Assembly (NCBI RefSeq): GCF_013149295.1 | Contig: NZ_JABGCB010000006.1 | Location: 62,001 to 126,000 of the forward strand | DNA from: Novosphingobium sp. SG751A | Lineage (GTDB): Bacteria; Pseudomonadota; Alphaproteobacteria; Sphingomonadales; Sphingomonadaceae | DNA: 64,000 nucleotides | Reading direction: 5' to 3' | Shown here: piece by piece, positions 19,038 to 63,610 of the stretch | How positions within the stretch are numbered: the first letter of the stretch is position 1 | Layout of the letters: every line of letters begins with the position of its first letter | Translations under genes and position numbers: made by a program | The notes under the pieces: model-generated | What the model was told of the DNA's origin: nothing | What the model saw: the letters and a program-made list of their open reading frames with translations, nothing else | The model's database searches: none

Positions 19038-20657
19038 TCAACGCGCGTCCTGAAGGATCAATTCGGCCGCCCGCGCGGCCACCAGCATGGCGGGACCATT
19101 GGTGTTGCCCGAAACCGGCGTGGGCATGATCGAGCAATCGACCACGCGCAGCCCATCGACCCCATGCACCCGGCAGCGGCCATCGGTGACCGAAGTGGCC
19201 CGGTCGGTGCCCATGGCGCAGGTGCCCATGCCATGCAGGCCCGGTTCGGCCATGGCGCGCACGGCATCGATCAATTCGGCCTCGCTCTGGATATGATTGC
19301 CCGGCACGCGCTCGTCGCCCACATAGGCCGAGAGCGCCTCGGCCCCGGCAAAGCGACGCAGCAGGTGGAACAGTTCGATGGCCTTTTCCTGATCGAAGGG
19401 ATCGGACCAGATTGCCGGGTCGACCAGCGGCGAAACTCGGAAATCGGGCGAGGTCACCGTGACATGTCCTCGGCTGCGCGGGCGCAGGTGATAGGCCGAG
19501 AAGGTGATGCCGGGGCGGTTGCTGATCGGGCTGCCGGGCTTTTCGGTCATTTCCTGCACCGTGCGCATGGCAAAGGCGGCGGCGGCAAGCTGGAAATCGG
19601 GCCACTCGGGCGCGGTGCCCTTCGATGGCACCAGCAAAGTGATCGGCAGGCCCACGCGCGCCAGCGGGCCGCTGCGCGTCAGGAAATAGCGCAAGGCATT
19701 GGCATAGAGGCGCGGCGCGACATATTCGCGGTTGGTGCCCGGATTGTTGTGCAGATCATAGGAAATGCCCATCTTCTGATGGTCAACCAGATTGCGCCCC
19801 ACCATCGCCAGATCGGCCTGCACCGCCACACCCAGACGCTGAAGCTCCGCCCCCGGACCCACGCCCGACAATTGCAGCATTTGCGGCGAGCCATAGACGC
19901 CCGCCGACAGGATCACTTCGCCGCGCGCATGAATGGCGATCTCCGCGCCATCGCGCTCGACGATCACGCCCTTGGCGCGGCCCTGCTCGATGGTGATGCG
20001 CTTGACCGGATTGTTGGTCAGGATGGTGAGATTGGGCCGGTTGCGGATGGGCGCGACAAAGGCCTCATAGCTGGAGGCGCGCTGGCCGGTTCGGCTGACA
20101 GTATATTGGGTGCGGCCGGCGCCGGGTGCGCCCGGCGTGGTGATGTCATCGGTCCATGGCGCGCCGATCGAGGCTGCGGCCTGCGCAATCGCGTCGAACA
20201 CGGGCGATTGATAGGTCGAGGGCGTGATCTGCAATTCGCCGTCGCGACCGCGGCCTGCATGGGCGCCGGGCGCGCGATAGGATTCAATGCTCTTGATGCA
20301 GCGCGCCATTTCGTCCCAGCCCCAGCCGGTCAGGCCGCGCGCGACCCAGTCGTTGTAATCGCCGGGCTGTCCGGGCAGATACCATGTGCCGTTAATCGCC
20401 GAAGAGCCGCCAAGGCCCCGGCCATAGGCCTGCATTTCCTTGCGGCGGCCCGGTTGCTGGACAACGGGATAAGCGCGAAAATAGTCCGGCTTGCCCATGA
20501 TTTTGACAAAGCCGCCGGCCATTTTGATGAACGGGTGCTGGTTGTCGCCGCCTTCCTCGATCAGCAGAACCTGATGGCGCGGATCGGCGCTGAGACGGTT
20601 GGCCAGCACGCAGCCTGCCGAGCCTGCGCCCACGATAATATAGTCGAAACTGGCCAT
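19038..20657 (-). CDS. GMC-family FAD-dependent oxidoreductase (candidate glycoside C3-oxidase)
   Basis: The protein has 539 residues from the ATG at 20657 (GGGGA 5 bases upstream); the frame continues upstream to 20678 but MASFDYIIVGAGSAGCVLANRL is the natural FAD-binding N-terminus (GxGxxG at 10-15). GMC signature 1 (YGRGLGGSSAINGTWYLPG) and the C-terminal GMGTCAMGT and NTNGPAMLVAARAAELI blocks are present. There is no signal peptide, so it is cytosolic. It is annotated by similarity as choline dehydrogenase-like. It is divergent from a CGD beta/alpha pair, and in CarA-type systems a GMC enzyme makes the 3-oxo-C-glycoside that the deglycosidase then cleaves. That role is inferred here from position and a shared operator. 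Confidence 0.85.
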   Translation of the reverse strand: MASFDYIIVGAGSAGCVLANRLSADPRHQVLLIEEGGDNQHPFIKMAGGFVKIMGKPDYFRAYPVVQQPGRRKEMQAYGRGLGGSSAINGTWYLPGQPGDYNDWVARGLTGWGWDEMARCIKSIESYRAPGAHAGRGRDGELQITPSTYQSPVFDAIAQAAASIGAPWTDDITTPGAPGAGRTQYTVSRTGQRASSYEAFVAPIRNRPNLTILTNNPVKRITIEQGRAKGVIVERDGAEIAIHARGEVILSAGVYGSPQMLQLSGVGPGAELQRLGVAVQADLAMVGRNLVDHQKMGISYDLHNNPGTNREYVAPRLYANALRYFLTRSGPLARVGLPITLLVPSKGTAPEWPDFQLAAAAFAMRTVQEMTEKPGSPISNRPGITFSAYHLRPRSRGHVTVTSPDFRVSPLVDPAIWSDPFDQEKAIELFHLLRRFAGAEALSAYVGDERVPGNHIQSEAELIDAVRAMAEPGLHGMGTCAMGTDRATSVTDGRCRVHGVDGLRVVDCSIMPTPVSGNTNGPAMLVAARAAELILQDAR

Positions 20658-20683
20658 GTGTCCCCGCCCGAATCCCACAAATG

Positions 20684-20704
20684 ATAATAGAACCTCTATT
20701 CGCT
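20684..20704. promoter_or_regulatory. Operator A-like half-conserved site (upstream of GMC gene)
   Basis: ATAGAAC-CTCT-ATTCGCT matches the TTAGAAT-N4-ATTCTAA pattern at 9 of 14 positions. It lies 30 bases upstream of the GMC start codon, in the divergent region shared with the CGD pair. Confidence 0.4.
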
Positions 20705-20743
20705 TTCTTTCAGCACGACCCTTGACCCCCTGTCAAGCATCAA

Positions 20744-20761
20744 TTAGAAGTGAAATTCCAA
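20744..20761. promoter_or_regulatory. Operator A site (TTAGAAG-N4-ATTCCAA)
   Basis: It matches 12 of 14 positions of the shared dyad TTAGAAT-N4-ATTCTAA. A -35 candidate TTGACC (20722-20727) lies 17 bases before TAGAAG (20745-20750), so the -10 of the CGD beta/alpha promoter would overlap the dyad, as expected for repressor control. The same dyad recurs before four other genes up to 27.1 kb. Confidence 0.6.
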
Positions 20762-20821: not shown

Positions 20822-21202
20822 ATGCTGCCTGTTGAACGAATCATCGGAGAGGAGGGCCTGACCGCCACCCCGCGAGGGGCAAGGCTGGCGATGCGCCTGC
20901 CTTGGTATCGCTCCTTGCCGTTTTCGACGGTTGAGGTCGCGGGCGTGACGCTGGACGGGGCGCCGGTCGATCTGACCGATGCGGTCGTCGAATTTGACGA
21001 CGCCAGCTTCCCGCTTGCCGAGATCGGCGAGCAGACCAATGCGTTCTGGTTCGTGCGCGACAGCGCGTTTCTGGTGCTGCCGGGCGTGCAGCTGGCGGCC
21101 GACAGCGAGCATGAAGTCTCGCTGCTGCTGCATGTGAACCCGCCCTATATTCCGGGCATGAAGCGCGTGAACCCGCAAACCGCCACGCTGCGCGTCAACT
21201 GA
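20822..21202 (+). CDS. C-glycoside deglycosidase beta subunit (DgpB/CarC-like, DUF6379), copy 1
   Basis: The protein has 126 residues. It shares with two other small proteins in the window the core LPWYRSLPFSTVEVAGVTLDG (pattern LPxYRxxxxS..V..DG), a Trp/Phe-containing middle (FWFVRDSAFLVLPG) and a beta-rich end with PPYIPG. The family partners a TIM-barrel alpha subunit in enzymes that cleave the C-C bond between sugar and aglycone of 3-oxo-C-glycosides. The beta subunit completes the active site and the assembly. It lies 19 bases upstream of its alpha partner (order beta-alpha). Recognition is from the conserved pattern and partner, not a database search. Confidence 0.8.
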   Translation: MLPVERIIGEEGLTATPRGARLAMRLPWYRSLPFSTVEVAGVTLDGAPVDLTDAVVEFDDASFPLAEIGEQTNAFWFVRDSAFLVLPGVQLAADSEHEVSLLLHVNPPYIPGMKRVNPQTATLRVN

Positions 21203-21221: not shown

Positions 21222-22232
21222 ATGACTGTTGCCAATGGCCCGCAGATGGGCGTTACGCTTTATTCCTTCACCAACGAATGGCTGACCCGCCAGTTCGAGC
21301 TGGACACGCTTCTGCGCGAGGTTGCCAAGCGCAATCTGGGGCCGAACATTGAAATCATCGGGTTTCAGAGCTTCAAGGAATTTCCCGATGTTTCGGATGA
21401 TTTCGCATCCTATTTCAAGGATCTGATTGCCGAAACCGGGCTTAACCCGGTGTCCTGCGCGATCAATTCGGATCGCTTTATGAAGCCCGGTCAGCAGCCG
21501 ATCGACGATGCTGATCTGGTCGAATATCATAAGCGCCAGTTGCGCAGCGCCAAGAAGCTGGGCTTCAAACTGGCGCGCGGGCAATTCGCGCTGCCGGCGC
21601 ATCTGCTGCCCGAACTGGCGCCTTTCTGCGAAGATCTCGGTATGCAGATGGGGGTTGAGGTTCACGCCCCGATGTGGGCACGCCACCCGGCCGTGCTGGA
21701 ATATCGCGAGATGTATGAAAAGCTGGATTCGCCCGCCTTGGGCTGGATTCCCGATTTCGGCGGCACGGCCCGCGCCATTCCGCCCAGCCTGCTGGACGCC
21801 GCGCGTGCGATCGGCACGCCCGAGGCGCTGATCGAGATCACCAAGGAGATCTGGGCCGAGGATGGTCCGTCCTATGTCAAGGCGGGCAAGCTGCGCGAAA
21901 TCGCAGCGGCCAAGGGCTATGAGCAGGCGCATCTTCAGGCCTGCACGCTGTCCTTCTTCATCCTGTCGAACAATGATCCCAAGAGCTGGGCCGAACTGGT
22001 GGACCGCACGATCCATATTCACGGCAAGTTCTATGGCGTGAGCGACGAGGGCGTGGAAGAAGCGATCCCCTATGAGGAGATCCTGCCGCTGTTCCGCGAC
22101 GGCGGGTTTACCGGCACGATCGTGTCGGAATGGGAAGGCCATGCCTATTGCGCCGTCGACGCCTTTGAGCAGGTGCGCCGCCATCAGGCGATGTGCCGCC
22201 GCATTCTGGCCGAGGCGCCGGTTGCGGCCTGA
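21222..22232 (+). CDS. C-glycoside deglycosidase alpha subunit (TIM barrel), copy 1
   Basis: The protein has 336 residues in the sugar phosphate isomerase/epimerase fold. Expected metal ligands are in order: Glu146 (VEVHAP), Asp178 (WIPDFG), His267 (IHIHGKF) and Glu303 (SEWEGH). The N-terminus MGVTLYSFTNEW is shared with copies 2 and 3 (GVSLYSYQNE, GVSLYSFTED). In characterised DgpC/CarB-type enzymes the metal-bound TIM barrel deprotonates the 3-oxo sugar and breaks the C-C glycosidic bond. An intrinsic terminator follows at 22257, ending a two-gene operon opposite the GMC oxidoreductase. Aglycone preference (6-C versus 8-C flavones) cannot be read from the sequence. Confidence 0.82.
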   Translation: MTVANGPQMGVTLYSFTNEWLTRQFELDTLLREVAKRNLGPNIEIIGFQSFKEFPDVSDDFASYFKDLIAETGLNPVSCAINSDRFMKPGQQPIDDADLVEYHKRQLRSAKKLGFKLARGQFALPAHLLPELAPFCEDLGMQMGVEVHAPMWARHPAVLEYREMYEKLDSPALGWIPDFGGTARAIPPSLLDAARAIGTPEALIEITKEIWAEDGPSYVKAGKLREIAAAKGYEQAHLQACTLSFFILSNNDPKSWAELVDRTIHIHGKFYGVSDEGVEEAIPYEEILPLFRDGGFTGTIVSEWEGHAYCAVDAFEQVRRHQAMCRRILAEAPVAA

Positions 22233-22294: not shown

Positions 22295-22948
22295 TCAGGC
22301 CGAGCGAAGATAGGCGATGCACATGCGCGCCAACTCGCCTTTCAGAATGTCCCAGTCCTGCGTCGGGCTCGATTCACTGGTCGAACCAAGGCTGAGCCGC
22401 CGCGCCAATGTTGCGAAGATGATCTGATAGACTGACTGGGCGCGCAATTGCGCGTCTGCCCCGCCTATTTCCCCGCTATATTCCAAAAAGGCCCGCGTCG
22501 AGGCGGCCACGGCATCATCGGCGGCCTGTTTGCCAAGGCCGGAAATCTGCCCGTCCTGTTCGGCGCGCAACATGGCAAGGCGCAGCAGCGGTGCATGCAG
22601 GCGCAGGACCTCGGCATAATCGGCGACGTAGTTTTCGACAAAATCGCCCAGATTATCGCAACTGCGCACCAGCTGTTCGAACATCGCATCCTCGGCATCG
22701 CGCAGGTCCTGCATCGCCTGCACCAATACCGCGCGCACCAGCGCATCCTTGCCTTCGAAACGCAGATAGATCGAGCCGATGGAAACCTGCCCCCGGCTGC
22801 TCACCTCCTGCAGCGTGAAATCCTCATTGCCGCGTTCCAGCATCAATTCGCGCGCAGTGGCCTGCATTCGCTCCAGCGAGGCCTTGCTGCGGCCCTGCAA
22901 AGGCGCGCGGGCGAGGGGCAGGGAGGAAGCGGGGGTTTCTTCGGACAT
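22295..22948 (-). CDS. TetR-family regulator (candidate regulator of the 19-27 kb CGD regulon)
   Basis: The protein has 217 residues from the ATG at 22948; the frame upstream starts with TTG. The helix-turn-helix region is MQATARELMLERGNEDFTLQEVSSRGQVSIGSIYLRFEGKDALVRAV. The all-helical C-terminal ligand domain ends with LARMCIAYLRSA. It starts 54 bases after the MFS gene stop on the same strand and sits in the middle of genes that carry operator A (20744, 25813, 26942, 27044), which makes it the best candidate for the cognate repressor. The natural effector could be a glycoside or aglycone (inference). Confidence 0.88.
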   Translation of the reverse strand: MSEETPASSLPLARAPLQGRSKASLERMQATARELMLERGNEDFTLQEVSSRGQVSIGSIYLRFEGKDALVRAVLVQAMQDLRDAEDAMFEQLVRSCDNLGDFVENYVADYAEVLRLHAPLLRLAMLRAEQDGQISGLGKQAADDAVAASTRAFLEYSGEIGGADAQLRAQSVYQIIFATLARRLSLGSTSESSPTQDWDILKGELARMCIAYLRSA

Positions 22949-23002
22949 CAAGGGCAACCTGCATGGGACCGGCGGAAGCTATGGCCCATAACCTTAATCG
23001 TC

Positions 23003-24217
23003 CTAGGCGCCAAACGGCTTTTGGAGCGCGGGTTTGCCGATCTGCATGGCCAGCAGGCCGCAGATGACAGCGCCGGCCAAAGCCGCCCCGCCCGCGGCCA
23101 GAAAGGCCATCTGCATCGTGCCCAGAGCGCGTGCGACAAAGCCGACGATGATGGGCGAAACGGCCTGTCCCAGAAAGAAGGCGCTGGTCCACAGACCCAT
23201 GCCGCGCCCGCGATGGGCAAAGGAGAATTTGGACTGCGCCCATGCGATCAGCGCCGGGACCGCCATGCCCGCGCCGGTCTGTTGCAAGATGAGGCCCGCC
23301 TGCATCGAAAGCACATTATGCGCCAGGCCGATTCCACCCAGCCCCAGCCCCAGCATCGCCAGAAAACCCCCGATCTGAACCGCATTGCCATAGCGCGACA
23401 GGATGCGAAACAGCACCGATCCGGCCAGAATGAAGAAGCTGGGCACGAAGGTGGCTTTGCTGATCGCCATAGGATCGCTCAGGCCCACCTCGTGCCAGAC
23501 GATGCTGCCATTCACGATGAACACGTAATAAAGCACCGAGGCAAACAGCGTCAGCCCCCCCACGGCCAGCGCCGAACCCATCGGAAAGGGCTGGGCCGGT
23601 TCGCTGGCGACGGTGATCTCGGCCTTGGGGCGGTTGGGTTCGAACAGGAAGAAGTACATCGAGATGAAGATCGGAAAGGCGATCAGATAGACGAGGAAGC
23701 CGCCATTCCAGCGCACCGCCGCGACGGCCGCCACCAGAATGAACACCAGAGGCTGAAAGAACGGTCCGACCAACCCTTGCAGCATCAGCCAGTTGCGCCG
23801 CCCATTGTCATCCCAGTAATCGGCGATAAGCGTGTTGACGATGGTCAGAATGCCCGCCTCGCACACACCCAGCAGGATGCGCGAGGCGATGATCGCATCC
23901 AGATTTTCCATCAGGAACGGCGCCGCCCCCACCACGCCATAGGCCAGCGTACAGGCCAGCAGCAGCGGCCGTCGCCCATAGCGATCCGCCAGCGCCCCGG
24001 CAAATGGCGCCAGCAGCGCAATCGCATAGCCCGGCGCCGTCACCATCGCGGGCACCCGGATCGCCGCATCGGGCAGATCCTTGAAATGGCCGATGATGGC
24101 CGCGACCACCGGAAACATCGCGATGATCGCAAAGACCGGCAGAAAGCCCGCCACGATCATCGTGAAACCCTGCGGCTTCAAGGTCAGGCTGCGATAGAAA
24201 TGGCGCAAAAAGAGCAT
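23003..24217 (-). CDS. MFS transporter of the CGD module
   Basis: The protein has 404 residues from the ATG at 24217 (GAGG 8 bases upstream); the open frame to 24286 runs through a terminator stem and was not used. Twelve transmembrane segments are expected; the loop 2-3 motif appears as GALADRYGRRPLLLA and a second-half signature as WAQSKFSFAHRGRGMGLW. It is downstream of a CGD pair on the same strand, so it likely moves the glycoside, aglycone or released sugar across the inner membrane. A hairpin just upstream (24241-24275) means it is expressed at a different level from the enzymes or from its own promoter. Confidence 0.87.
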   Translation of the reverse strand: MLFLRHFYRSLTLKPQGFTMIVAGFLPVFAIIAMFPVVAAIIGHFKDLPDAAIRVPAMVTAPGYAIALLAPFAGALADRYGRRPLLLACTLAYGVVGAAPFLMENLDAIIASRILLGVCEAGILTIVNTLIADYWDDNGRRNWLMLQGLVGPFFQPLVFILVAAVAAVRWNGGFLVYLIAFPIFISMYFFLFEPNRPKAEITVASEPAQPFPMGSALAVGGLTLFASVLYYVFIVNGSIVWHEVGLSDPMAISKATFVPSFFILAGSVLFRILSRYGNAVQIGGFLAMLGLGLGGIGLAHNVLSMQAGLILQQTGAGMAVPALIAWAQSKFSFAHRGRGMGLWTSAFFLGQAVSPIIVGFVARALGTMQMAFLAAGGAALAGAVICGLLAMQIGKPALQKPFGA

Positions 24218-24240
24218 TGGGCTTGCCTCATCCGGTCTTA

Positions 24241-24275
24241 TAAAAAGGGCGACGGTGATTGCCTCACCGCCGCCC
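24241..24275 (-). terminator. Intrinsic terminator after CGD beta copy 2
   Basis: Read on the minus strand: GGGCGGCGGTGA, loop GGCAA, TCACCGTCGCCC, then TTTTT (24246-24241). There is one mismatch in the stem. It separates the CGD genes from the MFS gene, whose start codon is 24 bases further on. Confidence 0.8.
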
Positions 24276-24282
24276 AGAGGCC

Positions 24283-24657
24283 TCACGCAGCAAGCGCGAG
24301 TTGCTTGGTGTCCTTTGTGGTGGGCACAAAGGGCAGATAGGATACGCGCATCCGCACGGCGAAGGTGATCGCATGGGTGCCTGCGGGCAGCCCCCCGTTC
24401 AGCGCGACGATCCGGGCCTTTTCGCCGAAATTCCAGCGATTGTCATAGACCGTCTCCATTTCGTCCAGCGTATAGGTCTGGCCGCGCACCGAGAAGCGGA
24501 TGGCTTCACGCGGGATCGCCGCGCCATCGACCGAGACGATAATGTCCTCGATCATGGAAAGGCCAAGGCCGCGATAATAGGGCAGGCGGCCAAGGAAGGA
24601 AAAGCCGCCCTCTTCGCGCTGAAGGCTGCCTTCGACGATCATCTTGTTGTCCATCAT
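24283..24657 (-). CDS. C-glycoside deglycosidase beta subunit, copy 2
   Basis: The protein has 124 residues, starting at ATG 24657 or 24654 after AAAGGAA. It shows the family core LPYYRGLGLSMIEDIIVSVDG, a middle WNFGEKARIVALNGG and the end MRVSYLPFVPTTKDTKQL. It is clearly related to copies 1 and 3 but differs at most non-core positions, so it is not a recent duplicate. The gene follows its alpha subunit by 15 bases (order alpha-beta, opposite to copy 1). It contributes the small lid or active-site subunit of the C-C bond-cleaving complex. Confidence 0.8.
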   Translation of the reverse strand: MMDNKMIVEGSLQREEGGFSFLGRLPYYRGLGLSMIEDIIVSVDGAAIPREAIRFSVRGQTYTLDEMETVYDNRWNFGEKARIVALNGGLPAGTHAITFAVRMRVSYLPFVPTTKDTKQLALAA

Positions 24658-25855: not shown

Positions 25856-26800
25856 TTATCGACGCCCATCATCCCGGCTTTCATCATGCAGCGGCAAGGT
25901 GACCTTGCCGGTCGCCGCCCATTCGGCCCCGCGCAGCATCATGTCCTGAAGCCCGGCGAAATGCAGCGAGACCTCATCATGGCCCACCGTCATCGAAAAG
26001 ACGCGGCCCTTGCCGTAATCGGCGGTCCATAATTGCGGATGGTCGGCGTCTATGCCCTTCATGGCTTTCAGCTTTTCGGGCGTATAGGCGGTCGGATCAT
26101 ATTTGTTGCTCATCAGCTTGGGCGCATAATCGGCCGCGCCATCGCGCGCGGTGGCCAGAACGTGGATCTTGGCCTCCGGGTCGATGCTCATGTTGGTGTA
26201 CATGTCATCGTTGAAGGTCCAGATATAGTCACGCATCCCCGCCGTGATGGGGTGGCTCTTGTCGATGATATGAATGGGGAAGGAACCGGGCGGCGCGCGG
26301 CGGCTCGATCCGGGCTGCATCACCGCGCCCACCAGCCGCTTATATTCGGGAATGTCGCGGCCCCAAGTAAACGAAGAGTGATAGGCCACCAGTCCGCCGC
26401 CTTCGCGCACATATTGGTAAAGCGCCTTGAAGGCCTCATCCGACCACAGGTGTTGTTCCGGATCGGCATAGTTCCAGCGGCTGGAATAATTGAGCAGCAC
26501 CACGTCATACGATTTGAGCATGGCCGGCGTGCCATGGTCGAAATCCTCGGTCACGCGCACGTCGAAGCGGCCGCTTTCCTGCATCAAACCGCGCAGCATG
26601 TTGTTCATGCCGGTCCAGTCATGTTCATACGAGTTCTGGCCGGAGATGATGAGAACACGCAGTCGCTTTTCCGCCGGATTGACCGGGATGGCGACCTTCT
26701 GCACCGTTTCGGGCGGGCGGTAATTGATGGTGACGATGGGCTGCGCGCCCGCCACCGAGGCCCATGCACCCGCCAGCGCCATCCAGAGATGTCGTTTCAT
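25856..26800 (-). CDS. ThuA-domain protein, secreted
   Basis: The protein has 314 residues from the ATG at 26800 (GGGAGAAGGAAG upstream); the open frame further upstream is intergenic. A signal peptide ends at ASVAGAQ. The class I glutamine-amidotransferase-like ThuA fold shows RVLIISGQNSYEHDW, YDVVLLNYSSRWNY, GGGLVAYHSSFTWGRD and HPITAGM. ThuA proteins are linked to trehalose utilisation and to 3-oxo-sugar pathways with Gfo/Idh/MocA and TIM-barrel enzymes, but the reaction is not settled. It is divergent from the TBDR at 27178 and precedes the CGD genes on the same strand. Operator A upstream suggests membership of that regulon. Confidence 0.83.
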   Translation of the reverse strand: MKRHLWMALAGAWASVAGAQPIVTINYRPPETVQKVAIPVNPAEKRLRVLIISGQNSYEHDWTGMNNMLRGLMQESGRFDVRVTEDFDHGTPAMLKSYDVVLLNYSSRWNYADPEQHLWSDEAFKALYQYVREGGGLVAYHSSFTWGRDIPEYKRLVGAVMQPGSSRRAPPGSFPIHIIDKSHPITAGMRDYIWTFNDDMYTNMSIDPEAKIHVLATARDGAADYAPKLMSNKYDPTAYTPEKLKAMKGIDADHPQLWTADYGKGRVFSMTVGHDEVSLHFAGLQDMMLRGAEWAATGKVTLPLHDESRDDGRR

Positions 26801-26941
26801 GCTTCCTTCTCCCTTGTGGTTTTGATCGTGCTCGCCGCCTAGCCGACAGGCGCAAGTCGCCTTGAGAAATGCCATTGGATACATGGGGATAGATGCATAT
26901 CTCTCTCCACTGTGCGGCACCGCTTTGGCGCGGCTTATAAT

Positions 26942-26959
26942 TAGAATAATGATTATTGT
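26942..26959. promoter_or_regulatory. Operator A site upstream of ThuA gene
   Basis: TTAGAAT-AATG-ATTATTG: the left arm is perfect, the right arm weak (3 of 7). It lies about 140 bases upstream of the ThuA start codon. Confidence 0.4.
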
Positions 26960-26964
26960 TACAG

Positions 26965-26989
26965 CGGTTGCACGGCCGTTGCAACCGCC
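26965..26989. promoter_or_regulatory. Perfect 9+7+9 inverted repeat
   Basis: GCGGTTGCA, seven bases CGGCCGT, then TGCAACCGC. It is distinct from operator A, has a CG-rich centre like LacI- or GntR-type operators, and lies in the divergent ThuA/TBDR region. No matching copy was noticed elsewhere in the window. Confidence 0.5.
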
Positions 26990-54683: not shown

Positions 54684-57600
54684 GTGGCCCAATTGTCCAG
54701 ATCCTCCATGCCCAGATTCTCCATGCATCACCTGCTTTGCGGCGTCGCGGTGTTTTCGATGTTTGTGGCGGGCGACCATGCGCGCGCCGCCTCGCCGCTA
54801 CCGGCTTCTCCCGATGCCGATCGCATGGAGGAGGGGTTCCGCGCCCCGCCCGCTTCGGCGCGCCCGCGGGTATGGTGGCATTGGATGAACGGCAATATTA
54901 CCAAAGAAGGCATTGCGGCCGACCTTGCATGGATGAAGCGCGTGGGCATCGGCGGTGTCCAGAATTTCGATATCGATCTGGATACACAGCAGATAGTCGA
55001 CCAGCGCCTCGTCTATATGACCCCGCCATGGAAAGACGCCTTCCGCTTTGCCGCCTCCGAGGCCGAGCGTTTGGGGCTGGAACTGGCCATTGCCTCTTCG
55101 CCCGGCTGGTCCGAAACCGGGGGGCCTTGGGTCGCGCCGGAAGATGGGCTCAAGAAACTGGTTTGGAGCGAGACACTTGTCCAGGGCGGTCGGCGCCAGA
55201 CTATTCGCCTCAAACAGCCTCCATCAGTTGCCGGACCTTTTCAAGATCTGGGCAGCCAGGTTGAGGTGACGGAGCTGATTTCGGGCGCAGCGCCCAAGGC
55301 CGGACCCGCCTTCTATCGCGATGTGAAGGTGTTGGCCGTGCCGGTCCAGTTGGCTGAGCCATTGCCTGCGCCGCAATTGACCGATGGCGAAGGCAAGGCG
55401 CTGGTGGCCGCAAAAGATCAAAGGGGGGCGCTGGTCGCCAATGTTCAGCTTGGGCCGGTGATCGCAAAGAAGGCGCCTGAGCTTAGATTGGATTTTGGCC
55501 GTCCCGTCACCGTCCGCACTGTCACGCTGCATATTCCGGGCGGAGCCATCCCCCTCATCGGCCCGCTCCTCGCCCCGGTCTTGCAATCAAGCGCAGACGG
55601 CAAGACATGGTCCGACATCGCCACCGTTCCGCTCGAAGCGACCCCGAGCACGCTGGCCCTCAACCCGGTCACCGCCCGCTATTTCCGGCTGGTGATCAAG
55701 CCCGCTCACGCCGCCGCCAACGGCAATCCGGCGCCCGACGAGCACACCGGCGATCTGGCCATGGGCGATGTGTTCGGCAAGGGCATGGGCCGTCTGATCT
55801 CTGCGCCGGTCACCATTGGATTGCTGGATTTCGGCGTGGAAACAAAGATCGACCGCTATGAGGTCAAGGCGGGTTTTTCCATCGCCCCGGACTATTACGC
55901 GCTACCTGGCGTGAAAGACGGCGCCACCGGCCCGGCGGCGGACCGCACGCTCGATCTGACCGATCGGATGAAGCCGGATGGCACGCTGGACTGGACCCCG
56001 CCGCCTGGAACGTGGAAAGTCTTGCGCTTTGGCTCCTCGCTGGTGGGCAAGACCAACCATCCGGCCCCGGCAGAGGCCACGGGATTGGAGGTCGACAAAT
56101 ATGACGCCGGTGCCGTCCGCCGCTATCTTGAACATTACCTTGCCAATTACCGGGATGCGGCAGGGGAGGGCATGATGGGCGCGCAGGGCGTGCGGGCGCT
56201 GCTGAACGATTCCATCGAGATCGGCGCGGCCAACTGGACGCCGCGCATGATCGAACGGTTCAAAAGCCTGCGCGGCTATGATCCGGTGCCGTGGATGCCG
56301 ACGCTGGCCGGAACGCTGATGGGCACGCGCGAGGAAAGCGAGCGCTTTCTGTTCGACTATCGCCGCACCCTGTCCGACCTGATGGCCAGCGAGCATTACG
56401 GCACCATCGCCGATGTGGCCCATCACCACGGCCTGAAAGTCTACGGCGAGGCGATTGAGGGTAACCGGTCGAGCTTTGGCGACGACATGGCCATGCGCCG
56501 CTTTGCTGATTATCCGATGGCGGCCATGTGGGCCTTTCCGGCAAAGCAAGGCCCCGCGCCGTCCTATGTGATCGATGTTCGCGGGGCGGCCTCGGTCGGC
56601 CATCTGTATGGCCAAAACATCATTGCGGCGGAATCGATGACCGCCGGCATGGCGCCCTGGGCGTTCGGACCCTCCGATCTTAAACATATTGCCGATCAGG
56701 AATTCGTGCTGGGCGTCAACCGGCCGGTCGTCCACACCTCGGTGCATGTGCCGGTCGAGGATCGCAAGCCGGGCCTGTCGCTGGGCGGGATCGGACAATT
56801 CTTCAACCGCAACGAAAGCTGGGCCGAACTGGCCAAACCCTGGGTGGATTACCTGTCGCGCAATGCCTTTATGCTGCAACAGGGGCGCAACTGGGCCGAT
56901 GTCGCCTATTTCTATGGCGAGGAGGCGCCTCTTTCGGGCCTGTACGGCACGCGGCCCGTGGCCGACGCGCCGAGCCGTTACGCCTATGATTTCGTCAATG
57001 TCGATGCCCTGACTTCGGCGCTGACCAATGATGGGGATGGATTGGTCTCGCCCGGTGGCGCGCGCTATCGCGTCCTTTATCTGGGTGGATCATCGCGCCG
57101 GATGACATTGCCGACCTTGCGCCGGATTGCCGAATTGGTCGAAGGCGGGGCGACGGTGATCGGTATGGCGCCGGAAAGCTCGCCGGGGCTGATGAACGAC
57201 CGGGCGGAATATGATGCGCTGGTGCGCAAACTGTGGCCCGCATCGGGCGGGACAGGCGCGGCGGTCCGTGTCGGCAAGGGGCAGGTCATCGCCTCGGCCT
57301 ATATTGACGGGGCGCTGGCGGATCTGGGTATTGCGCCGGACTTTCTTGCCGTGGGCGCCTCCGACAAGGCCGATATCGCCTTTGCCCACCGCCACTTTGC
57401 CGATGGCGAAAGCTATTTTCTGGTTAACCGCACCGGGCGGACCGAGCGCTTCGAGGCCCATTTCGCGGTATCCGGCAAGGCGCCGCAGCTGTGGCATGCC
57501 GAAACTGGTGCGATTGAGGAGGCATCCTATCGGATTGCCGGGAATGAAACCATTGTCCCGATGGAGCTTAAGGCTGGCGATGCCGTGCATGTGGTGTTCC

Positions 57601-58136
57601 GCCGCCCGGCCGAAAGCGGCGGGCGGCGCACCGCACCGGCCACCGGGGGTGCAGTGGCCACACTGACCGGCCGATGGGAGGTGCGGTTTGAAGCGGGACG
57701 CGGCGCCCCGGTGCAGATCGACATGGCGGCTCTGGCGCCGCTTGATCAGAATGCCGATCCACGGGTCCGCTATTTCTCCGGCATCGCCACCTATTCCACG
57801 AGCTTTGCTCCGCCCAAAGGATGGCGCCCGGGTCAACCGCTTTCCCTCGATCTGGGCGAAGCGCGGGAAATTGCCGAAGTGACGGTGAACGGAAAAGCGG
57901 CAGGCGCTGTCTGGCGGGCGCCCTATACGGTCGAGGTGGGCGCCTTCACCCGGCCGGGCAAGGCCAACCGTTTGGAGATCCGCGTGGCGAACCTGTGGGT
58001 CAACCGCCTGATTGCGGATGCCGATCCTGCGGTGAAGGACAAGGTTTCGTGGACATCTGTGCGTACCTACAAACCTACTGCGGCCTTGCGCCGTTCCGGT
58101 CTGATCGGGCCGGTCACGCTTCAGACGGGGCGGTGA
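54684..58136 (+). CDS. GH106 alpha-L-rhamnosidase, GTG start
   Basis: The protein has 1150 residues, close to the length of Sphingomonas RhaM. GTG 54684 follows GGGGAGAAATCC; an ATG at 54708 is an alternative. A signal peptide ends near DHARA. Family features: VWWHWMNGNITKEGIAADLAWMKRVGIGGVQNFDID, ASSPGWSETGGPWV, a jelly-roll insertion (about 170-370), then NDSIEIGAANWTPRMIERFKSLRGYDPVPWMPTLAG and the C-terminal galactose-binding-like domain (VTVNGKAAGAVWRAPYTVEVG). It removes terminal alpha-L-rhamnose from flavonoid or saponin glycosides (for example rutin- or naringin-type). Probably periplasmic. Confidence 0.92.
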   Translation: MAQLSRSSMPRFSMHHLLCGVAVFSMFVAGDHARAASPLPASPDADRMEEGFRAPPASARPRVWWHWMNGNITKEGIAADLAWMKRVGIGGVQNFDIDLDTQQIVDQRLVYMTPPWKDAFRFAASEAERLGLELAIASSPGWSETGGPWVAPEDGLKKLVWSETLVQGGRRQTIRLKQPPSVAGPFQDLGSQVEVTELISGAAPKAGPAFYRDVKVLAVPVQLAEPLPAPQLTDGEGKALVAAKDQRGALVANVQLGPVIAKKAPELRLDFGRPVTVRTVTLHIPGGAIPLIGPLLAPVLQSSADGKTWSDIATVPLEATPSTLALNPVTARYFRLVIKPAHAAANGNPAPDEHTGDLAMGDVFGKGMGRLISAPVTIGLLDFGVETKIDRYEVKAGFSIAPDYYALPGVKDGATGPAADRTLDLTDRMKPDGTLDWTPPPGTWKVLRFGSSLVGKTNHPAPAEATGLEVDKYDAGAVRRYLEHYLANYRDAAGEGMMGAQGVRALLNDSIEIGAANWTPRMIERFKSLRGYDPVPWMPTLAGTLMGTREESERFLFDYRRTLSDLMASEHYGTIADVAHHHGLKVYGEAIEGNRSSFGDDMAMRRFADYPMAAMWAFPAKQGPAPSYVIDVRGAASVGHLYGQNIIAAESMTAGMAPWAFGPSDLKHIADQEFVLGVNRPVVHTSVHVPVEDRKPGLSLGGIGQFFNRNESWAELAKPWVDYLSRNAFMLQQGRNWADVAYFYGEEAPLSGLYGTRPVADAPSRYAYDFVNVDALTSALTNDGDGLVSPGGARYRVLYLGGSSRRMTLPTLRRIAELVEGGATVIGMAPESSPGLMNDRAEYDALVRKLWPASGGTGAAVRVGKGQVIASAYIDGALADLGIAPDFLAVGASDKADIAFAHRHFADGESYFLVNRTGRTERFEAHFAVSGKAPQLWHAETGAIEEASYRIAGNETIVPMELKAGDAVHVVFRRPAESGGRRTAPATGGAVATLTGRWEVRFEAGRGAPVQIDMAALAPLDQNADPRVRYFSGIATYSTSFAPPKGWRPGQPLSLDLGEAREIAEVTVNGKAAGAVWRAPYTVEVGAFTRPGKANRLEIRVANLWVNRLIADADPAVKDKVSWTSVRTYKPTAALRRSGLIGPVTLQTGR

Positions 58137-59259: not shown

Positions 59260-60477
59260 TCAGGACGCTTCGGCATCCAGCGGGGTCAGATGTGGCTTTG
59301 CCTGTGACAGTGCATCGGCCAGATCAAAGGGCGATGGCGTCAGCGCGATCAGATCGGCATCGGCCACCGGATCGATTGGGTCGGGGCGGCGGCACCGGGT
59401 TTGCATGGCGATCGATTGGCCGATGCGTGCCGATTGCGCGATGGCTTCCATCACTTCCACCGCATGGACGATGAAGTCGGGCGCGGTACGGTGTCGGCGG
59501 CCATTGCGCAGCGCAAGGACCAGATCGGTCAGACCGACGCCGCGGTAATCGGCCACGGGCTGGCCCGCGTGGTTCAGGCGATTGGGCTGGGAAAAGGGCA
59601 GATCATTGCCGGGCAGGGCGGTGCGTCCTTCGCCGGGGCGCAGCAGCGACGGCTCGCCGCTGAAAAAGATCGGATCGGCCAGCGAGAGAATGCCCTGCGC
59701 GCCATACAGTTCGCCCGGCCGCTGGATCGGCGCCACCACATCCAGCGACATGGTCAGATTGACGAAGCCGGTTTCAAATTCCAGCGTGGCATTAAAGGTG
59801 GTGTCGACCTCAACGTTAAAGGAGGTGCCCTGCAGCGGCCCGCGCCGGATGGTGCGTTGCGCCTGCCCGTTGCCCGATGCGGCGAACACACGGCGCACGG
59901 GCCCCAGCAGATGCAGCCACATCGTGATGTAGTACGGGCCTACATCGAAGGGCGGCTCGCCGCCAGGTTGATAGAAGGCCGCCGGATTGGGGTGGAAATG
60001 TTCCAGCCCCGGCAGGCCCAACAGCGATGTGCCGAACACCGGGCGGCCAATCGCGCCGCCATCCAGCGCGCGGCGCGCGGCCTGATGTGCGCTGCCATAG
60101 AACGTGTCGGGCGCCGATCCGATCAGCACGCCGCGCGCTTCGGCCCGTTCGGCCAGTTCCTCTGCCACTCTGCGCGACAGGGCGAAGGGCTTTTCGGAAT
60201 AGACATGTTTACCCGCCTCAATCGCGGCGCGGTTGATCTCTTCATGCGCGCTGCCGGGGGTCAGGTTGACGACCAGTTCGATCGCGTCATCGGCCAGCAA
60301 TTCCGCCACGCTGCACCCGGTTGCGCCATAGGGCGCGGCGATGGCTTGAACATTGTCGCGGTTGCGGGTGGCGATCTTGCGCAGCGTCACGGCCGACGAG
60401 CGCGCGATGGCGCCCAGATACACCGCACTGATGTCGCCTGCACCGATCACGCCGATGCAGACCGGATCGATAGCCAT
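59260..60477 (-). CDS. Gfo/Idh/MocA-family NAD(P)-dependent oxidoreductase (DgpA-like role)
   Basis: The protein has 405 residues. The Rossmann motif is GVIGAGDISAVYLG (9-22), the catalytic Lys is in SEKPFAL (EKP at 95-97) and the substrate motif DVGPYYITMWLHLLG lies at 178-192. No signal peptide, so cytosolic. In Dgp-type pathways an enzyme of this family oxidises C3 of the glucosyl unit before C-C bond cleavage. Here it is divergent from an MFS-CGD operon, with operator B on both promoters. It is therefore the most likely oxidation partner of CGD copy 3 (inference). Confidence 0.87.
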   Translation of the reverse strand: MAIDPVCIGVIGAGDISAVYLGAIARSSAVTLRKIATRNRDNVQAIAAPYGATGCSVAELLADDAIELVVNLTPGSAHEEINRAAIEAGKHVYSEKPFALSRRVAEELAERAEARGVLIGSAPDTFYGSAHQAARRALDGGAIGRPVFGTSLLGLPGLEHFHPNPAAFYQPGGEPPFDVGPYYITMWLHLLGPVRRVFAASGNGQAQRTIRRGPLQGTSFNVEVDTTFNATLEFETGFVNLTMSLDVVAPIQRPGELYGAQGILSLADPIFFSGEPSLLRPGEGRTALPGNDLPFSQPNRLNHAGQPVADYRGVGLTDLVLALRNGRRHRTAPDFIVHAVEVMEAIAQSARIGQSIAMQTRCRRPDPIDPVADADLIALTPSPFDLADALSQAKPHLTPLDAEAS

Positions 60478-60495: not shown

Positions 60496-60518
60496 TTATC
60501 TAAACAATGTTTAAATAA
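60496..60518. promoter_or_regulatory. Operator B: TTATCTAAAC-AAT-GTTTAAATAA
   Basis: A near-perfect 10+3+10 palindrome (one mismatch). The left arm is the exact complement of the GTTTAGATAA repeated at 52267 and 52289. It lies 19 bases upstream of the Gfo/Idh/MocA start codon. Confidence 0.7.
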
Positions 60519-60670: not shown

Positions 60671-60699
60671 CCTTAATCTAAACGACGGTTAGATTAAGG
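60671..60699. promoter_or_regulatory. Operator B: 29-bp palindrome before MFS gene
   Basis: CCTTAATCTAAACG, centre A, CGGTTAGATTAAGG: arms of 14 with one mismatch. The core TCTAAAC-GAC-GGTTAGA matches the other operator B sites. It lies 91 bases upstream of the MFS start codon. Confidence 0.72.
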
Positions 60700-60790
60700 G
60701 GCGCCGCTCTATCCATAGCTTGGCCCGAACTGCGGGGCGCGTCGGTTATGGCGTCTCCCGCGATTTGCCCGAAGGTTGAGGTTTGTCATC

Positions 60791-62248
60791 ATGAAGACCC
60801 CAGTGGCGCCTGCCCCACTGTCGATATCCTTGCATCGCCATGGCGAGGCGGCGGCGGAACTGTCGGCGCGGCAGAAGTCGCTGGCGTTTTTTACGCTGCT
60901 GACGGCTCTGGCGCTGGAAATCATCGACCTCACCATCGTCAACACGGTGCTGCCGGCCATCGAACATGACCTCAGGGCCGATTCTGCTCAGTCGCAATGG
61001 GTGATCGCGGCCTATTCGCTCAGCTTTGCCGTACTGCTCATTCTGGGCGGACGGCTGGGCGATCTGTTTGGCGGGCGGCGGATGTTCCTGGTGGGCGTGG
61101 GCGGGTTTACGGCATCCTCGCTGCTCTGCGGACTTGCTTCAACGCCGCATCATCTGATCGCCGCTCGCGCGCTGCAAGGCATGACCGGCGCGATGATGGC
61201 GCCTCAGGTGATGACCATGATCCAGCTGCTTTATGATCCGGTGGAGCGCATCGGGCGGATTGCGTGGTTTGGCGTGGTGGGAGGCCTGTCGGCCATCGTC
61301 GGGCCTTTGCTGGGCGGGGTGTTGATCGCGCTGAACCTGTTCGGGCTGGGATGGCGGGCGGTGTTCCTGCTGAATGTGCCGATCGGGCTGTTGGCGGTGC
61401 TGGCGGGGATCGTTTTGCTGCCTCGTGCCGAGCGCCACCCGGATCGCAGGATAGATATTGTCGGCACGGCACTGTTTGGCGCGGGCTTGTTCGCCTTCCT
61501 TTTTCCGATGATTCAGGAAAAGCGCCATGGTTTTGATGCGGCGATGGTGGTGTGGTGGCTGGCCGCACTGGGTTTGGCCGGGGCAGGGCTGATTCATCAA
61601 CGCCGCCGTCAGCGCAAGCGACAGGCCACCGTTATCGAGCCGGGCATGTTTGCCAACGATACTTTTCGTCTGGGCGTCCTGATCTCGTTGAGCTTTTCGG
61701 CAGCCAACACGGGGTTTCTTTTCGTGTTCGCCTATGCGCTGCAACGCGAACTGGGCTTTTCCGCCTTGCAGACCGGCCTGTTGCACGTGCCTTTCAGCGC
61801 CGGGGTGATGTTTGCCATGGCCTTTCTGGTGCGCCGGTTTCTCACGCAATATGGCCGTATGGTGCTGATCGTTGGCGCCATCATCATGGGCGCAGGGTGC
61901 ATGGGCATTCTGGGGTGGATGGCTCTTGGCGCTGTCCGGCCGGTGCTGCTCATTCCGGTTCTCTTGCTGGCCGGGGTGGGCATGGGGCTGGTTTCGGGGC
62001 CTTTGGGCGCGGTTTCGGTGGCGCGGGTGGAGCGACAGCAGGCAGGATCGGCCAGCGGCATCATCAAGACTGTCCAGCAAATGGGCGGGGCGCTGGGCAT
62101 TGCCTTGGTCGGCTCGGCCTATCTCCAGTTTGCCGAAAACGGGCGGGGCGAGGCGGCTGCGCTTGCCGTGATGCTCGCCCTGTTGGCGCTGTGCCTGTTC
62201 TGGGCTGCGCGGCTGCCGCAGGAAATTTTCCCGCGCAAGGCGGGTTGA
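60791..62248 (+). CDS. MFS transporter, DHA2 type, copy 2
   Basis: The protein has 485 residues from the ATG at 60791 (GAGG upstream; 60776 is a TTG). The motifs EIIDLTIVNTVLPAIEHDL, GGRLGDLFGGRRMF and GPLLGGVLIALNLFGLGWRAVFLLN match copy 1 at 31800 almost position by position, so the two are paralogs. A CGD alpha/beta pair follows 33 bases later. It probably moves the glycoside, aglycone or a sugar product under operator B control. Confidence 0.87.
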   Translation: MKTPVAPAPLSISLHRHGEAAAELSARQKSLAFFTLLTALALEIIDLTIVNTVLPAIEHDLRADSAQSQWVIAAYSLSFAVLLILGGRLGDLFGGRRMFLVGVGGFTASSLLCGLASTPHHLIAARALQGMTGAMMAPQVMTMIQLLYDPVERIGRIAWFGVVGGLSAIVGPLLGGVLIALNLFGLGWRAVFLLNVPIGLLAVLAGIVLLPRAERHPDRRIDIVGTALFGAGLFAFLFPMIQEKRHGFDAAMVVWWLAALGLAGAGLIHQRRRQRKRQATVIEPGMFANDTFRLGVLISLSFSAANTGFLFVFAYALQRELGFSALQTGLLHVPFSAGVMFAMAFLVRRFLTQYGRMVLIVGAIIMGAGCMGILGWMALGAVRPVLLIPVLLLAGVGMGLVSGPLGAVSVARVERQQAGSASGIIKTVQQMGGALGIALVGSAYLQFAENGRGEAAALAVMLALLALCLFWAARLPQEIFPRKAG

Positions 62249-62281
62249 ATATCAAACCATTGAAGAAAAGGAGAGTTTCAG

Positions 62282-63184
62282 GTGGAGGATCGCTTCAAAT
62301 ACGGCGTGTCTCTTTACAGCTTTACCGAGGATTTCGGCAGCGTCATGTCGATCGAGGAAGGCTTTGACCATATTGCCGACACTGGCGCCACAGGTATCGA
62401 GATCCTGGGTGAAACCCATGTGACGGGCTATCCCACGCCGGACAAGGCGTGGCTGGACCGCTGGTTCGGCCTGCTGGACCGTACCGGGCTGGAGCCGACC
62501 AACATGTGCTCGTGGGTGGACACCAAGCTGCGCCTTGGCCAGTCGCTGTCGGTGGACGAGGGGGCGGCCGAGCTGGTGCGCGATCTGACGCTGGCGCATC
62601 AGTTGGGCTTCAAGTTTCTGCGGCCCAAATTCGGCGTGATCTCCGCCGATCTGGTGCCGGACCCGATCTGGGCGCCCGCGGTAGAGCGCGTGCTGGATCT
62701 GGCGCACAAGCTGGACATCGTGATCTGTCCTGAAATCCATTCGCCAACGCCGATCAACCATCCGGTCGTCCATGGCTATATCGATTTCATCGAACGCACC
62801 GGCACCAAGAACTTCGCCTTGCTGATCGACACCGGAATCTTTCAGGACCGGCCGCTGAAGAGCTGGGTACATGAGGTGCCCGAAGGCGACAGCGACCATG
62901 CCAAGCTGATCAACGGCATGAAGGTGAACCCCGAGGAACTGGTGGGCATCGCGCCCTACATCGCCTTTATCCAGGCCAAGTTCCATCACATCGACGACAA
63001 CCTCCATGACGAGAACATCCCGTGGGAAAAGGTGATCCCGGTGCTCAAGCGCATTGGCTACACCGGCTATCTGTCGAGTGAATATGAGGGCGTGCGCGAA
63101 CCGTGGGTGGCGATCGACCAGGTGCGCCGACAGCATGTGCTGCTGCGCCGGCTTGAGGCTGCCTGCGACGCTGTGCCCGCCTAA
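62282..63184 (+). CDS. C-glycoside deglycosidase alpha subunit, copy 3 (GTG start)
   Basis: The protein has 300 residues; GTG 62282 follows AAAAGGAGAG. It is 36-40 residues shorter than copies 1 and 2, mostly in the region after the second metal ligand. Ligand positions: Glu151 (CPEIHSP), Asp183 (LLIDTG), Gln231 (FIQAKF) where the other copies have His, and Glu267 (SSEYEG). Gln at this place is used by hydroxypyruvate isomerases, so the site is probably still metal-binding. N-terminus GVSLYSFTED and tail QVRRQHVLLRRL match the paralogs. Confidence 0.8.
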   Translation: MEDRFKYGVSLYSFTEDFGSVMSIEEGFDHIADTGATGIEILGETHVTGYPTPDKAWLDRWFGLLDRTGLEPTNMCSWVDTKLRLGQSLSVDEGAAELVRDLTLAHQLGFKFLRPKFGVISADLVPDPIWAPAVERVLDLAHKLDIVICPEIHSPTPINHPVVHGYIDFIERTGTKNFALLIDTGIFQDRPLKSWVHEVPEGDSDHAKLINGMKVNPEELVGIAPYIAFIQAKFHHIDDNLHDENIPWEKVIPVLKRIGYTGYLSSEYEGVREPWVAIDQVRRQHVLLRRLEAACDAVPA

Positions 63185-63196
63185 CCCCTCTTCAGG

Positions 63197-63610
63197 ATGA
63201 CCATCATGTATGAATTCCAATTGATCCAAAGCACCGGTTTTCGCAACCACGGACCAGAGGGCGCGCGCGATGGCGTTGAAGTGCGCCTGCGCCTGCCCAA
63301 TTATCGCGGCATGCGCCTCTCGCTGCTGGACGGTATCGACGTTACGCTCGACGGCGAGTTCTTCAGCCACGAAGTCACCAGCCTGATCCTGGGCGGCACG
63401 GTGTATGACCTTGCCGCCATGCGCGATGCCACCACTGTGCGCTGGGCGATGGGCGAACATGCCAGCGTGCTGGTGCCCAAGCCGGGCGGGCTCCTGCCCG
63501 GCATTCACCATGTCAAGGTGGCCGCCCTGGTGCGCTCGCCCTATTTCCCGCCGCATCTGCAACCTTTGCCGGTGCATGGCGAGCGTCTGGCCACCATCGT
63601 GCTGCCCTGA
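63197..63610 (+). CDS. C-glycoside deglycosidase beta subunit, copy 3
   Basis: The protein has 137 residues, 12 bases after the alpha subunit. The family core is LPNYRGMRLSLLDGIDVTLDG, followed by FFSHEVTSLILGGTVYDL, VRWAMGEHASVLVPKPGGLLPG and RSPYFPPHLQPLP. The order alpha-beta is as in copy 2. It forms the small subunit of the third putative C-C bond-cleaving enzyme. Confidence 0.8.
   Translation: MTIMYEFQLIQSTGFRNHGPEGARDGVEVRLRLPNYRGMRLSLLDGIDVTLDGEFFSHEVTSLILGGTVYDLAAMRDATTVRWAMGEHASVLVPKPGGLLPGIHHVKVAALVRSPYFPPHLQPLPVHGERLATIVLP

What the first reader, a model, noticed from the sequence alone, without database searches (positions are those of the whole stretch)
19038..63610. Three divergent C-glycoside deglycosidase pairs with three kinds of oxidoreductase in one island
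Seen: three alpha/beta gene pairs (20822-22232, 24283-25695, 62282-63610) with TIM-barrel metal-site motifs and a shared small-subunit core LPxYRxxxxS. They stand near a cytosolic GMC enzyme (19038), a Tat-exported GMC dehydrogenase (29581-31798) and a Gfo/Idh/MocA enzyme (59260). Known: DgpBC/CarBC-type enzymes cleave 3-oxo-C-glycosides made by GMC (CarA) or Gfo/Idh/MocA (DgpA) enzymes. Inference: one strain carries parallel 3-oxo-C-glycoside pathways, each with its own importer, oxidiser, cleaver and repressor, perhaps for different aglycones or 6-C versus 8-C attachment. Such multiplicity in one locus would be unusual and worth biochemical study.
Basis: partly seen in the sequence, partly recalled or inferred. 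Interest (0 to 1): 0.9.

Follow-up and report, generated by a model that had tools for sequence, protein, structure and literature searches.

The report
Three ancient C-glycoside lyases, two switches
A Novosphingobium bacterium carries, within 45,000 bases, three distantly related two-part enzymes of a family known to cut sugars off plant compounds at a carbon-carbon bond; they are likely run by two separate genetic switches rather than three, and the first would work with an oxidising enzyme of a different type from the one known in other soil bacteria.

Summary
Observation confirmed: three real gene pairs; all three small subunits pass Pfam's CGDB cut-off; the catalytic His, Glu and small-subunit Tyr are kept. 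Predicted structures of the most divergent pair match solved C-glycoside deglycosidases (CGDs) far above other folds. The large subunits fall in three old branches; nearest solved enzymes come from Arthrobacter, Deinococcus and Microbacterium.

Interpretation partly supported. (1) Two modules, not three pathways: a palindrome TTAGAAn6TTCTAA stands before pairs 1 and 2, another (CTAAACn3GTTTAG) before pair 3's genes; a second TetR lies outside the window. (2) In N. humi the modules lie roughly 600 kb apart. (3) The GMC enzyme beside pair 1 is choline-dehydrogenase-like, not CarA-like; it stands divergently beside pair 1 in 33 of 37 related loci, and none of the 37 shows a CarA-type enzyme in its flanks. 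(4) The 'Tat-exported GMC' is two genes laid out like GlycDH and its Tat partner. (5) Several CGDs per genome is common: 25 of 195 Novosphingobium genomes have three or more matches.

Substrates, 6-C versus 8-C preference and the GMC enzyme's role are untested.

The parts
19038..20678 (-). Choline-dehydrogenase-like GMC oxidoreductase, divergent from pair 1; candidate oxidiser for pair 1 (inferred)
   Evidence: GMC_oxred_N/C; NF002550 395 bits (below that model's cut-off of 605), pyranose_ox only 27 bits; divergent neighbour in 33 of 37 loci
20744..20761 (.). Operator A site in the divergent promoter region GMC | beta1
   Evidence: a site within 3 mismatches in 34 of 34 regions
20822..21202 (+). 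CGD beta1, LPWYR core
21222..22232 (+). CGD alpha1, TIM barrel
22295..22957 (-). TetR regulator, likely repressor of module A; downstream of alpha2-beta2-MFS on the same strand
   Evidence: TetR_N
23003..24286 (-). MFS transporter of module A
   Evidence: MFS_1
24283..24657 (-). CGD beta2, LPYYR core
   Evidence: PF19906 115.5 bits; 8qvc_B 80 bits
24673..25740 (-). CGD alpha2, TIM barrel (start may be 25695)
   Evidence: 8qvc (Deinococcus aerius CGD) 356 bits
25813..25830 (.). Operator A site upstream of alpha2
   Evidence: a site within 3 mismatches upstream of alpha2 in 15 of 15 tested
25856..27034 (-). ThuA-domain protein, module A, role unknown
   Evidence: PF06283
27044..27061 (.). Operator A site, ThuA | TonB receptor; weaker copies at 26941 and 27080
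27172..29478 (+). TonB-dependent receptor, module A
29581..30114 (+). Gluconate_2-dh3-type small subunit with twin-arginine signal
   Evidence: PF13618; MARREFMAGMALL
30128..31798 (+). GMC catalytic subunit without its own signal; likely periplasmic glycoside 3-dehydrogenase with the small subunit
31761..33188 (+). MFS transporter
33207..33986 (+). Hydroxypyruvate-isomerase-like TIM barrel; candidate for a later sugar step
   Evidence: kin in the flanks of alpha1 in 17 of 37 loci
16392..17378 (-). TIM barrel related to O-glycoside eliminase AtOGE (8bvk) and to the 8tcd chain; not in either operator set
   Evidence: 8tcd 91 bits, 8bvk 75 bits
52276..52298 (.). Operator B site upstream of TonB receptor 52382
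   Evidence: 4 mismatches to the 23-base form; core with 1 mismatch
52382..54595 (+). TonB-dependent receptor, module B
54684..58136 (+). GH106 alpha-L-rhamnosidase, module B
   Evidence: PF17132 990 bits
58240..59229 (-). PF06439 protein (3-keto-disaccharide hydrolase family); candidate lyase or hydratase
   Evidence: no solved relative by sequence
59260..60477 (-). Gfo/Idh/MocA oxidoreductase, module B
60496..60518 (.). Operator B site, Gfo promoter side
60674..60696 (.). Operator B site, MFS-alpha3-beta3 promoter side
60776..62248 (+). MFS transporter, module B
62282..63184 (+). CGD alpha3, short TIM barrel
   Evidence: 8qrz (Microbacterium testaceum CGD) 368 bits
63197..63610 (+). CGD beta3, LPNYR core
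   Evidence: PF19906 108.7 bits

Best explanation
The island holds three alpha/beta gene pairs of the C-glycoside deglycosidase family, from three old branches of that family, and they are likely run as two separately switched modules that would oxidise plant glycosides at sugar C3 and then split the aglycone off by beta-elimination. Module A (about 19 to 32 kb, perhaps to 34) has pairs 1 and 2, a TonB receptor, MFS carriers and one TetR; its operator TTAGAAn6TTCTAA stands in the promoter regions of the GMC enzyme and pair 1, of pair 2, and of ThuA and the receptor (motif shown; binding inferred). Two enzymes could make the 3-keto substrate: a likely periplasmic GlycDH-like complex (29581-31798), and a cytosolic choline-dehydrogenase-like GMC enzyme that shares a promoter region with pair 1 (role inferred from fixed linkage); an MFS carrier would bring in the keto-glycoside or the unoxidised substrate. 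Module B (52.2-63.6 kb plus a TetR about 4.5 kb beyond the window) has a TonB receptor, a GH106 rhamnosidase that would trim rhamnose, a Gfo/Idh/MocA enzyme, a PF06439 protein, an MFS carrier and pair 3, under operator CTAAACn3GTTTAG. In each pair the alpha-subunit metal and His would take the C2 proton of the 3-keto sugar while the beta-subunit Tyr stabilises the phenolate (mechanism from PuCGE and AgCGD2; residues shown here, activity not). PF06439 or hydroxypyruvate-isomerase-like TIM barrels would hydrate the resulting 2-hydroxy-3-keto-glucal (inferred).
Against: No activity, substrate or expression data. CGD-type enzymes can also cleave 3-keto O-glycosides (PMC10628242), so C-glycosides need not be the natural substrate. 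alpha1 is about 31% identical to its nearest solved CGD, and its wider branch has sub-threshold support (83/94). alpha3 has Gln where alpha1 and alpha2 have His in I(H/Q)xKF, as does solved 8qrz. The Gfo enzyme is no nearer to DgpA than to inositol dehydrogenases. Operator-to-TetR assignment is by proximity: of 33 loci with the operator, 14 show no TetR1 homologue in their flanks. Operator B was found in N. humi but not clearly in four of the five other alpha3 loci from other species that I scanned, and once, with 4 mismatches, in SG707; its 23-base form at 3 mismatches or fewer gave no match in the downstream flank, only the 15-base core did. 77 of 298 gene-upstream windows in the 15 tested loci reach 3 or fewer mismatches to operator A, including regulon genes and overlapping neighbours that I did not sort. 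The operator A consensus was drawn from window sites, so only sites in other species are independent.
Confidence: 0.72

Rival explanations
1. The pairs are 3-keto-O-glycoside eliminases in nature: the island degrades O-linked (for example rhamnosylated) flavonoid glucosides, and C-glycoside cleavage is a side activity.
For: PuCGE cleaves both 3-keto O- and C-glucosides; a GH106 rhamnosidase, a GH3 and an AtOGE-like TIM barrel lie in the window.
Against: The beta-subunit Tyr, whose change in PuCGE abolishes C- but hardly O-cleavage, is invariant in the 19-row beta alignments and in 41 of 42 loci; the other has no readable beta.
Confidence: 0.15
2. One reading: three fully parallel pathways, each with its own importer, oxidiser, cleaver and repressor.
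For: Three pairs, several MFS carriers and three oxidoreductase types are present.
Against: Pairs 1 and 2 have the same operator type and one TetR gene lies between them; pair 2 lies within 10 kb of alpha1 in 16 of 37 loci, and a pair-4-type alpha in 3 more.
Confidence: 0.05
3. Pair 1 is not a cleaver but acts on the product of pair 2, for example hydrating 2-hydroxy-3-keto-glucal.
For: Pair 1 is often linked to pair 2; [quoted passage not shown]
Against: His, Glu and Tyr of cleavage are kept; other hydratase candidates are near; 18 of 37 alpha1 loci show neither pair 2 nor a pair-4-type alpha in their flanks, though some flanks are cut by contig ends.
Confidence: 0.08

Closest known systems
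AgCGD2 / AgCarB2-C2 (7dnm, 7dnn; accepts the C8-glycoside)
   Same: Same alpha/beta folds, His149/Glu307 and Tyr equivalents; nearest solved relative of pair 1
   Different: About 31% alpha identity and a separate long branch; Arthrobacter CGD loci read here have a pyranose-oxidase-type GMC, pair 1 has a choline-dehydrogenase-like one
Deinococcus aerius TR0125 CGD (8qvc, 8umc)
   Same: Nearest solved relative of pair 2, 356 bits
   Different: The near-identical D. aetherius gene sits beside a pyranose-oxidase-type GMC; pair 2 sits with a TetR, an MFS carrier and a GlycDH-like complex
Microbacterium testaceum CGD (8qrz, 8un2) and EuCGD (7bvs; C6)
   Same: Nearest solved relatives of pair 3; same branch at 100/100
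   Different: 8qrz is a beta-alpha fusion; pair 3 is two genes in a Gfo/PF06439/GH106 module
PUE dgpABC
   Same: Gfo/Idh/MocA oxidiser with a CGD, as in module B
   Different: Gfo here is not clearly DgpA (50 bits); a PF06439 protein, GH106 and a TonB receptor are added
GlycDH + TAT protein (Rhizobium GIN611) and AtOGE/AtHYD
   Same: GMC subunit plus Tat-signal protein; GlycDH oxidises orientin, vitexin, isovitexin, puerarin; AtOGE-like TIM barrel at 16392
   Different: Here combined with alpha/beta CGDs; sequence identity to GlycDH itself not measured
Multi-CGD strains: Arthrobacter globiformis AgCGD1/2, P. siccitolerans cluster, Catenibacillus
   Same: Several CGDs per genome
   Different: Other phyla; oxidisers named there are PsG3Ox (pyranose-oxidase group) or DgpA type

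Membership tests
C-glycoside deglycosidase (CGD/CGE) | Small subunit of the CGDB family | tested here: met
   PF19906 over cut-off in all three
C-glycoside deglycosidase (CGD/CGE) | TIM-barrel alpha of CGD type with catalytic His and Glu | tested here: met
C-glycoside deglycosidase (CGD/CGE) | Beta-subunit Tyr needed for C-cleavage | tested here: met
   Invariant Tyr in LPxYR; equivalence to PuCGE Tyr39 by counting along the match
C-glycoside deglycosidase (CGD/CGE) | Alpha and beta genes side by side | tested here: met
   Gaps of 19, 15 and 12 bases
C-glycoside deglycosidase (CGD/CGE) | Cleaves 3-keto-C-glycoside, metal dependent, forms a heterocomplex | not testable with these tools
   Needs purified protein
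CarA / C-glycoside 3-oxidase (pyranose oxidase type GMC), for 19038-20678 | Homology to the pyranose-oxidase group over its length | tested here: not met
   TIGR02462 27 bits over 65 C-terminal residues, against 210-214 bits for CGD-linked GMCs of D. aetherius and Arthrobacter NicSoilB11; BLAST to these gives only short matches
GlycDH-type glycoside 3-dehydrogenase, for 29581-31798 | GMC catalytic subunit paired with a small Tat-signal subunit | tested here: met
GlycDH-type glycoside 3-dehydrogenase, for 29581-31798 | Close sequence relation to GlycDH AEX01166 | not tested
   Reference sequence not at hand
DgpA, for 59260-60477 | Gfo/Idh/MocA enzyme nearest to DgpA | tested here: inconclusive
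   DgpA 50 bits, inositol/L-glucose dehydrogenase 61 bits

The most novel reading that the evidence does not exclude
The choline-dehydrogenase-like GMC beside pair 1 is a new class of glycoside 3-oxidase/dehydrogenase that takes CarA's place in sphingomonads, locked to its lyase by a shared divergent operator; with pair 2 under the same operator, the two lyases form a relay that strips both sugars from 6,8-di-C-glycosyl flavonoids or takes 6-C and 8-C isomers together.
Probability: 0.3. Interest if true: 0.72.

Novelty: new variant of a known kind. Interest (0 to 1): 0.5.

Why it matters
C-glycosides resist ordinary glycosidases, and how plant C-glycosyl flavonoids return to the carbon cycle is poorly known. 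The work here gives a testable module map, two specific operators and a candidate oxidiser of a type not tied to this chemistry in the paper passages I read. Orthologues in Novosphingobium aromaticivorans DSM 12444 (SARO_RS18730/35, RS18755/60, RS18765) make knock-out tests practical. Three separate lyase lineages in one cell also allow a direct comparison of 6-C and 8-C preference, useful for enzymatic C-glycosylation run in reverse (PMC13273386, passages).

Tried and rejected
Recent duplication of one pair: rejected; alpha2 and alpha3 are 31% and 25% identical to alpha1, beta2 and beta3 22% and 23% to beta1, and the alphas fall in separate branches. CarA-type enzyme elsewhere in the genome: the best TIGR02462 match is 61 bits over the last quarter of the profile, against about 210 for CGD-linked ones, so no clear CarA homologue was seen. 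Catalase beside the locus as a hint of H2O2 production: present on N. aromaticivorans pNL2 but found in only 1 of 37 loci and not in the window or the four flanking or N. humi stretches searched; dropped. AtOGE-type cleaver as the main enzyme: a relative exists at 16392 but no operator site was found beside it. C6/C8 prediction from the tree: alpha3 groups with C6-acting EuCGD at 100/100, alpha1 with C8-acting AgCGD2 only below threshold; too weak to claim. Papers on the W974-1/P581a DgpABC sets behind PDB 9m3a/9m3b: three listings, none evidently about them. Papers on CGDs in Novosphingobium: none seen in the listings (20 of 401 listed; 15 of 19 listed). The J Mol Biol paper on the D. aerius cluster is recalled only, not read.
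Full report
Setting. The window is part of a 334-kb contig of a 5.7-Mb genome. In several other Novosphingobium the same genes lie on large plasmids.

They are old, separate lineages. In a 40-row alpha tree alpha2 sits with the Deinococcus enzyme (98/98) and alpha3 with M. testaceum CGD and EuCGD (100/100). alpha1 sits in a wider AgCGD2-containing group with support below the mark (83/94). A fourth pair of the alpha2 branch is on contig C43.

Multiplicity is not unusual here. PF19906 matches occur in 72 of 195 Novosphingobium genomes; from the listing I count 25 with three or more matches, up to six. They occur in 17 of 298 genomes sampled across the family and in 4 of 398 across the phylum, own genome included and one below cut-off. 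Arthrobacter sp. StoSoilB13 has five CGD-like alpha ORFs in about 20 kb, two of them beta-alpha fusions, one short and one very divergent. A Gaiellaceae MAG, a Marmoricola and Parahaliea maris also cluster several. Papers report two CGDs in A. globiformis, two pairs beside PsG3Ox in P. siccitolerans (PMC10646112, passages) and three to six in several Catenibacillus species (PMC11170127, passages).

The island is two modules. In N. humi KACC 19094 window 5326-29199 and 52222-64000 match the same circular plasmid roughly 600 kb apart. In N. sp. SG707 the pair-3-like genes also lie hundreds of kb from pair 2. I saw these three pairs together within 45 kb in this genome and N. sediminicola; I did not check every genome, and another genome (G312) has three PF19906 matches within about 32 kb of one contig, whose lineages I did not determine.

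Two operators. Comparing intergenic regions gave two palindromes. Operator A (TTAGAATnnnnATTCYAA, up to 3 mismatches) gives 11 rows, six places, in the window against 2.0 rows expected; five of the six places lie at 20744-27097. The GMC|beta1 region has a site within 3 of 14 fixed positions in 34 of 34 regions tested, the window and 33 loci (16 with one mismatch, 14 with two, 4 with three), against 0.7% of composition-keeping shuffles. The 200 bases upstream of alpha2 have one in 15 of 15, window included, against 0.5%; two further alpha2 loci (L044, L054) were not in that set. In the whole genome, at 1 mismatch or fewer, operator A occurs at five places: three in the island, one just upstream of another TetR + small subunit + GMC (75% identical) set on C27, and one at the 5' end of a PF06439-like gene, inside its called start, on C8. 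Operator B (CTAAACn3GTTTAG core) occurs at five places in the genome, all around module B: before the TonB receptor and GH106, twice between Gfo and MFS, and twice between an MFS-TetR gene pair and a TIM-barrel gene beyond the window. Its 23-base form at 3 mismatches or fewer did not match in that downstream flank. Across species operator B is less general: found in N. humi, once with 4 mismatches in SG707, and not clearly in four of the five other alpha3 loci scanned (L029, L033, L088, L089, L099 and the distant L079 gave 4-6 mismatches or none). That pairs 1 and 2 carry one motif and pair 3's genes another is shown by sequence; that the two TetR proteins read them is inference from position, and 14 of 33 operator-bearing loci show no TetR1 homologue in their flanks.

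Oxidisers. The GMC at 19038 is choline-dehydrogenase-like (395 bits, below that model's own cut-off of 605) and not pyranose-oxidase-like, whereas the GMC genes beside CGDs in Arthrobacter NicSoilB11 and D. aetherius are. It stands divergently 504-643 bases from alpha1 in 33 of 37 loci with alpha1 at 61% identity or more. Of the other four, one contig ends before the place (L048), two lack it (L071, L076) and one has only a partial alpha1 (L078). None of the 37 shows a CarA-type GMC at 30% identity or more within its flanks of up to 10 kb. Five more distant loci (L077, L079-L082) were not in this count and lack the choline-type GMC. PurABC-type sets, with a CarA-like oxidase, are reported for some Pseudomonadota (PMC12724307, passages), so CarA-type enzymes are not absent from the phylum. 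This fixed coupling is the strongest new lead. The 29581-31798 stretch is a small twin-arginine subunit plus a GMC subunit like fructose dehydrogenase, the layout of GlycDH and its Tat protein; GlycDH oxidises orientin, vitexin, isovitexin and puerarin. The Gfo enzyme is not clearly DgpA.

Further steps. PF06439 and TIM-barrel proteins near each module, and an AtOGE relative at 16392, are candidates for hydration or O-cleavage; their roles are guesses.

Verdict. Observation right; enzyme family right; the picture of three parallel, unusual pathways should be replaced by two regulated modules with three lyase lineages and a possible new oxidiser type.

Noticed in passing
window 34105-38968: Malonate block: malonyl-CoA decarboxylase, AMP-binding (malonyl-CoA synthetase-like) enzyme, GntR, MadL, MadM; might use malonate from malonylated glycosides.
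   Followed up: no
L050:9599-10996 (Novosphingobium sp. MW5): beta1 and alpha1 read as one 465-aa frame, a possible natural fusion or a sequencing error.
   Followed up: partly
L083 (Arthrobacter sp. StoSoilB13 plasmid): Five CGD-like alpha ORFs in about 20 kb, two of them beta-alpha fusions; one is nearly identical to AgCGD2.
   Followed up: partly
L107:7938-11019 (contig C27): Operator A-like site before a TetR, a Tat-type small subunit and a 75% identical GMC enzyme: a second GlycDH-like set, perhaps in the same regulon.
   Followed up: partly
L109:4191-8731 (contig C5): A third small subunit + GMC set (50% identical) beside an AtOGE-like TIM barrel, LacI and TonB receptor.
   Followed up: no
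L025 (contig C43): Fourth CGD pair with an alpha/beta-hydrolase gene between alpha and beta, a GH1 gene, MFS and TonB receptor.
   Followed up: partly
window 46903-51481: Cobalamin genes (histidine phosphatase, CobS, class I/II aminotransferase, CobD/CbiB, CbiA/CobB-type) between the two modules.
   Followed up: no
window 1178-12526: PhoD phosphatase, PepSY protein, LacI and three TonB receptors upstream of module A.
   Followed up: no
L076 (Nitrospira MAG): alpha1/beta1-like genes of sphingomonad type in a Nitrospira bin; contamination or transfer not resolved.
   Followed up: no
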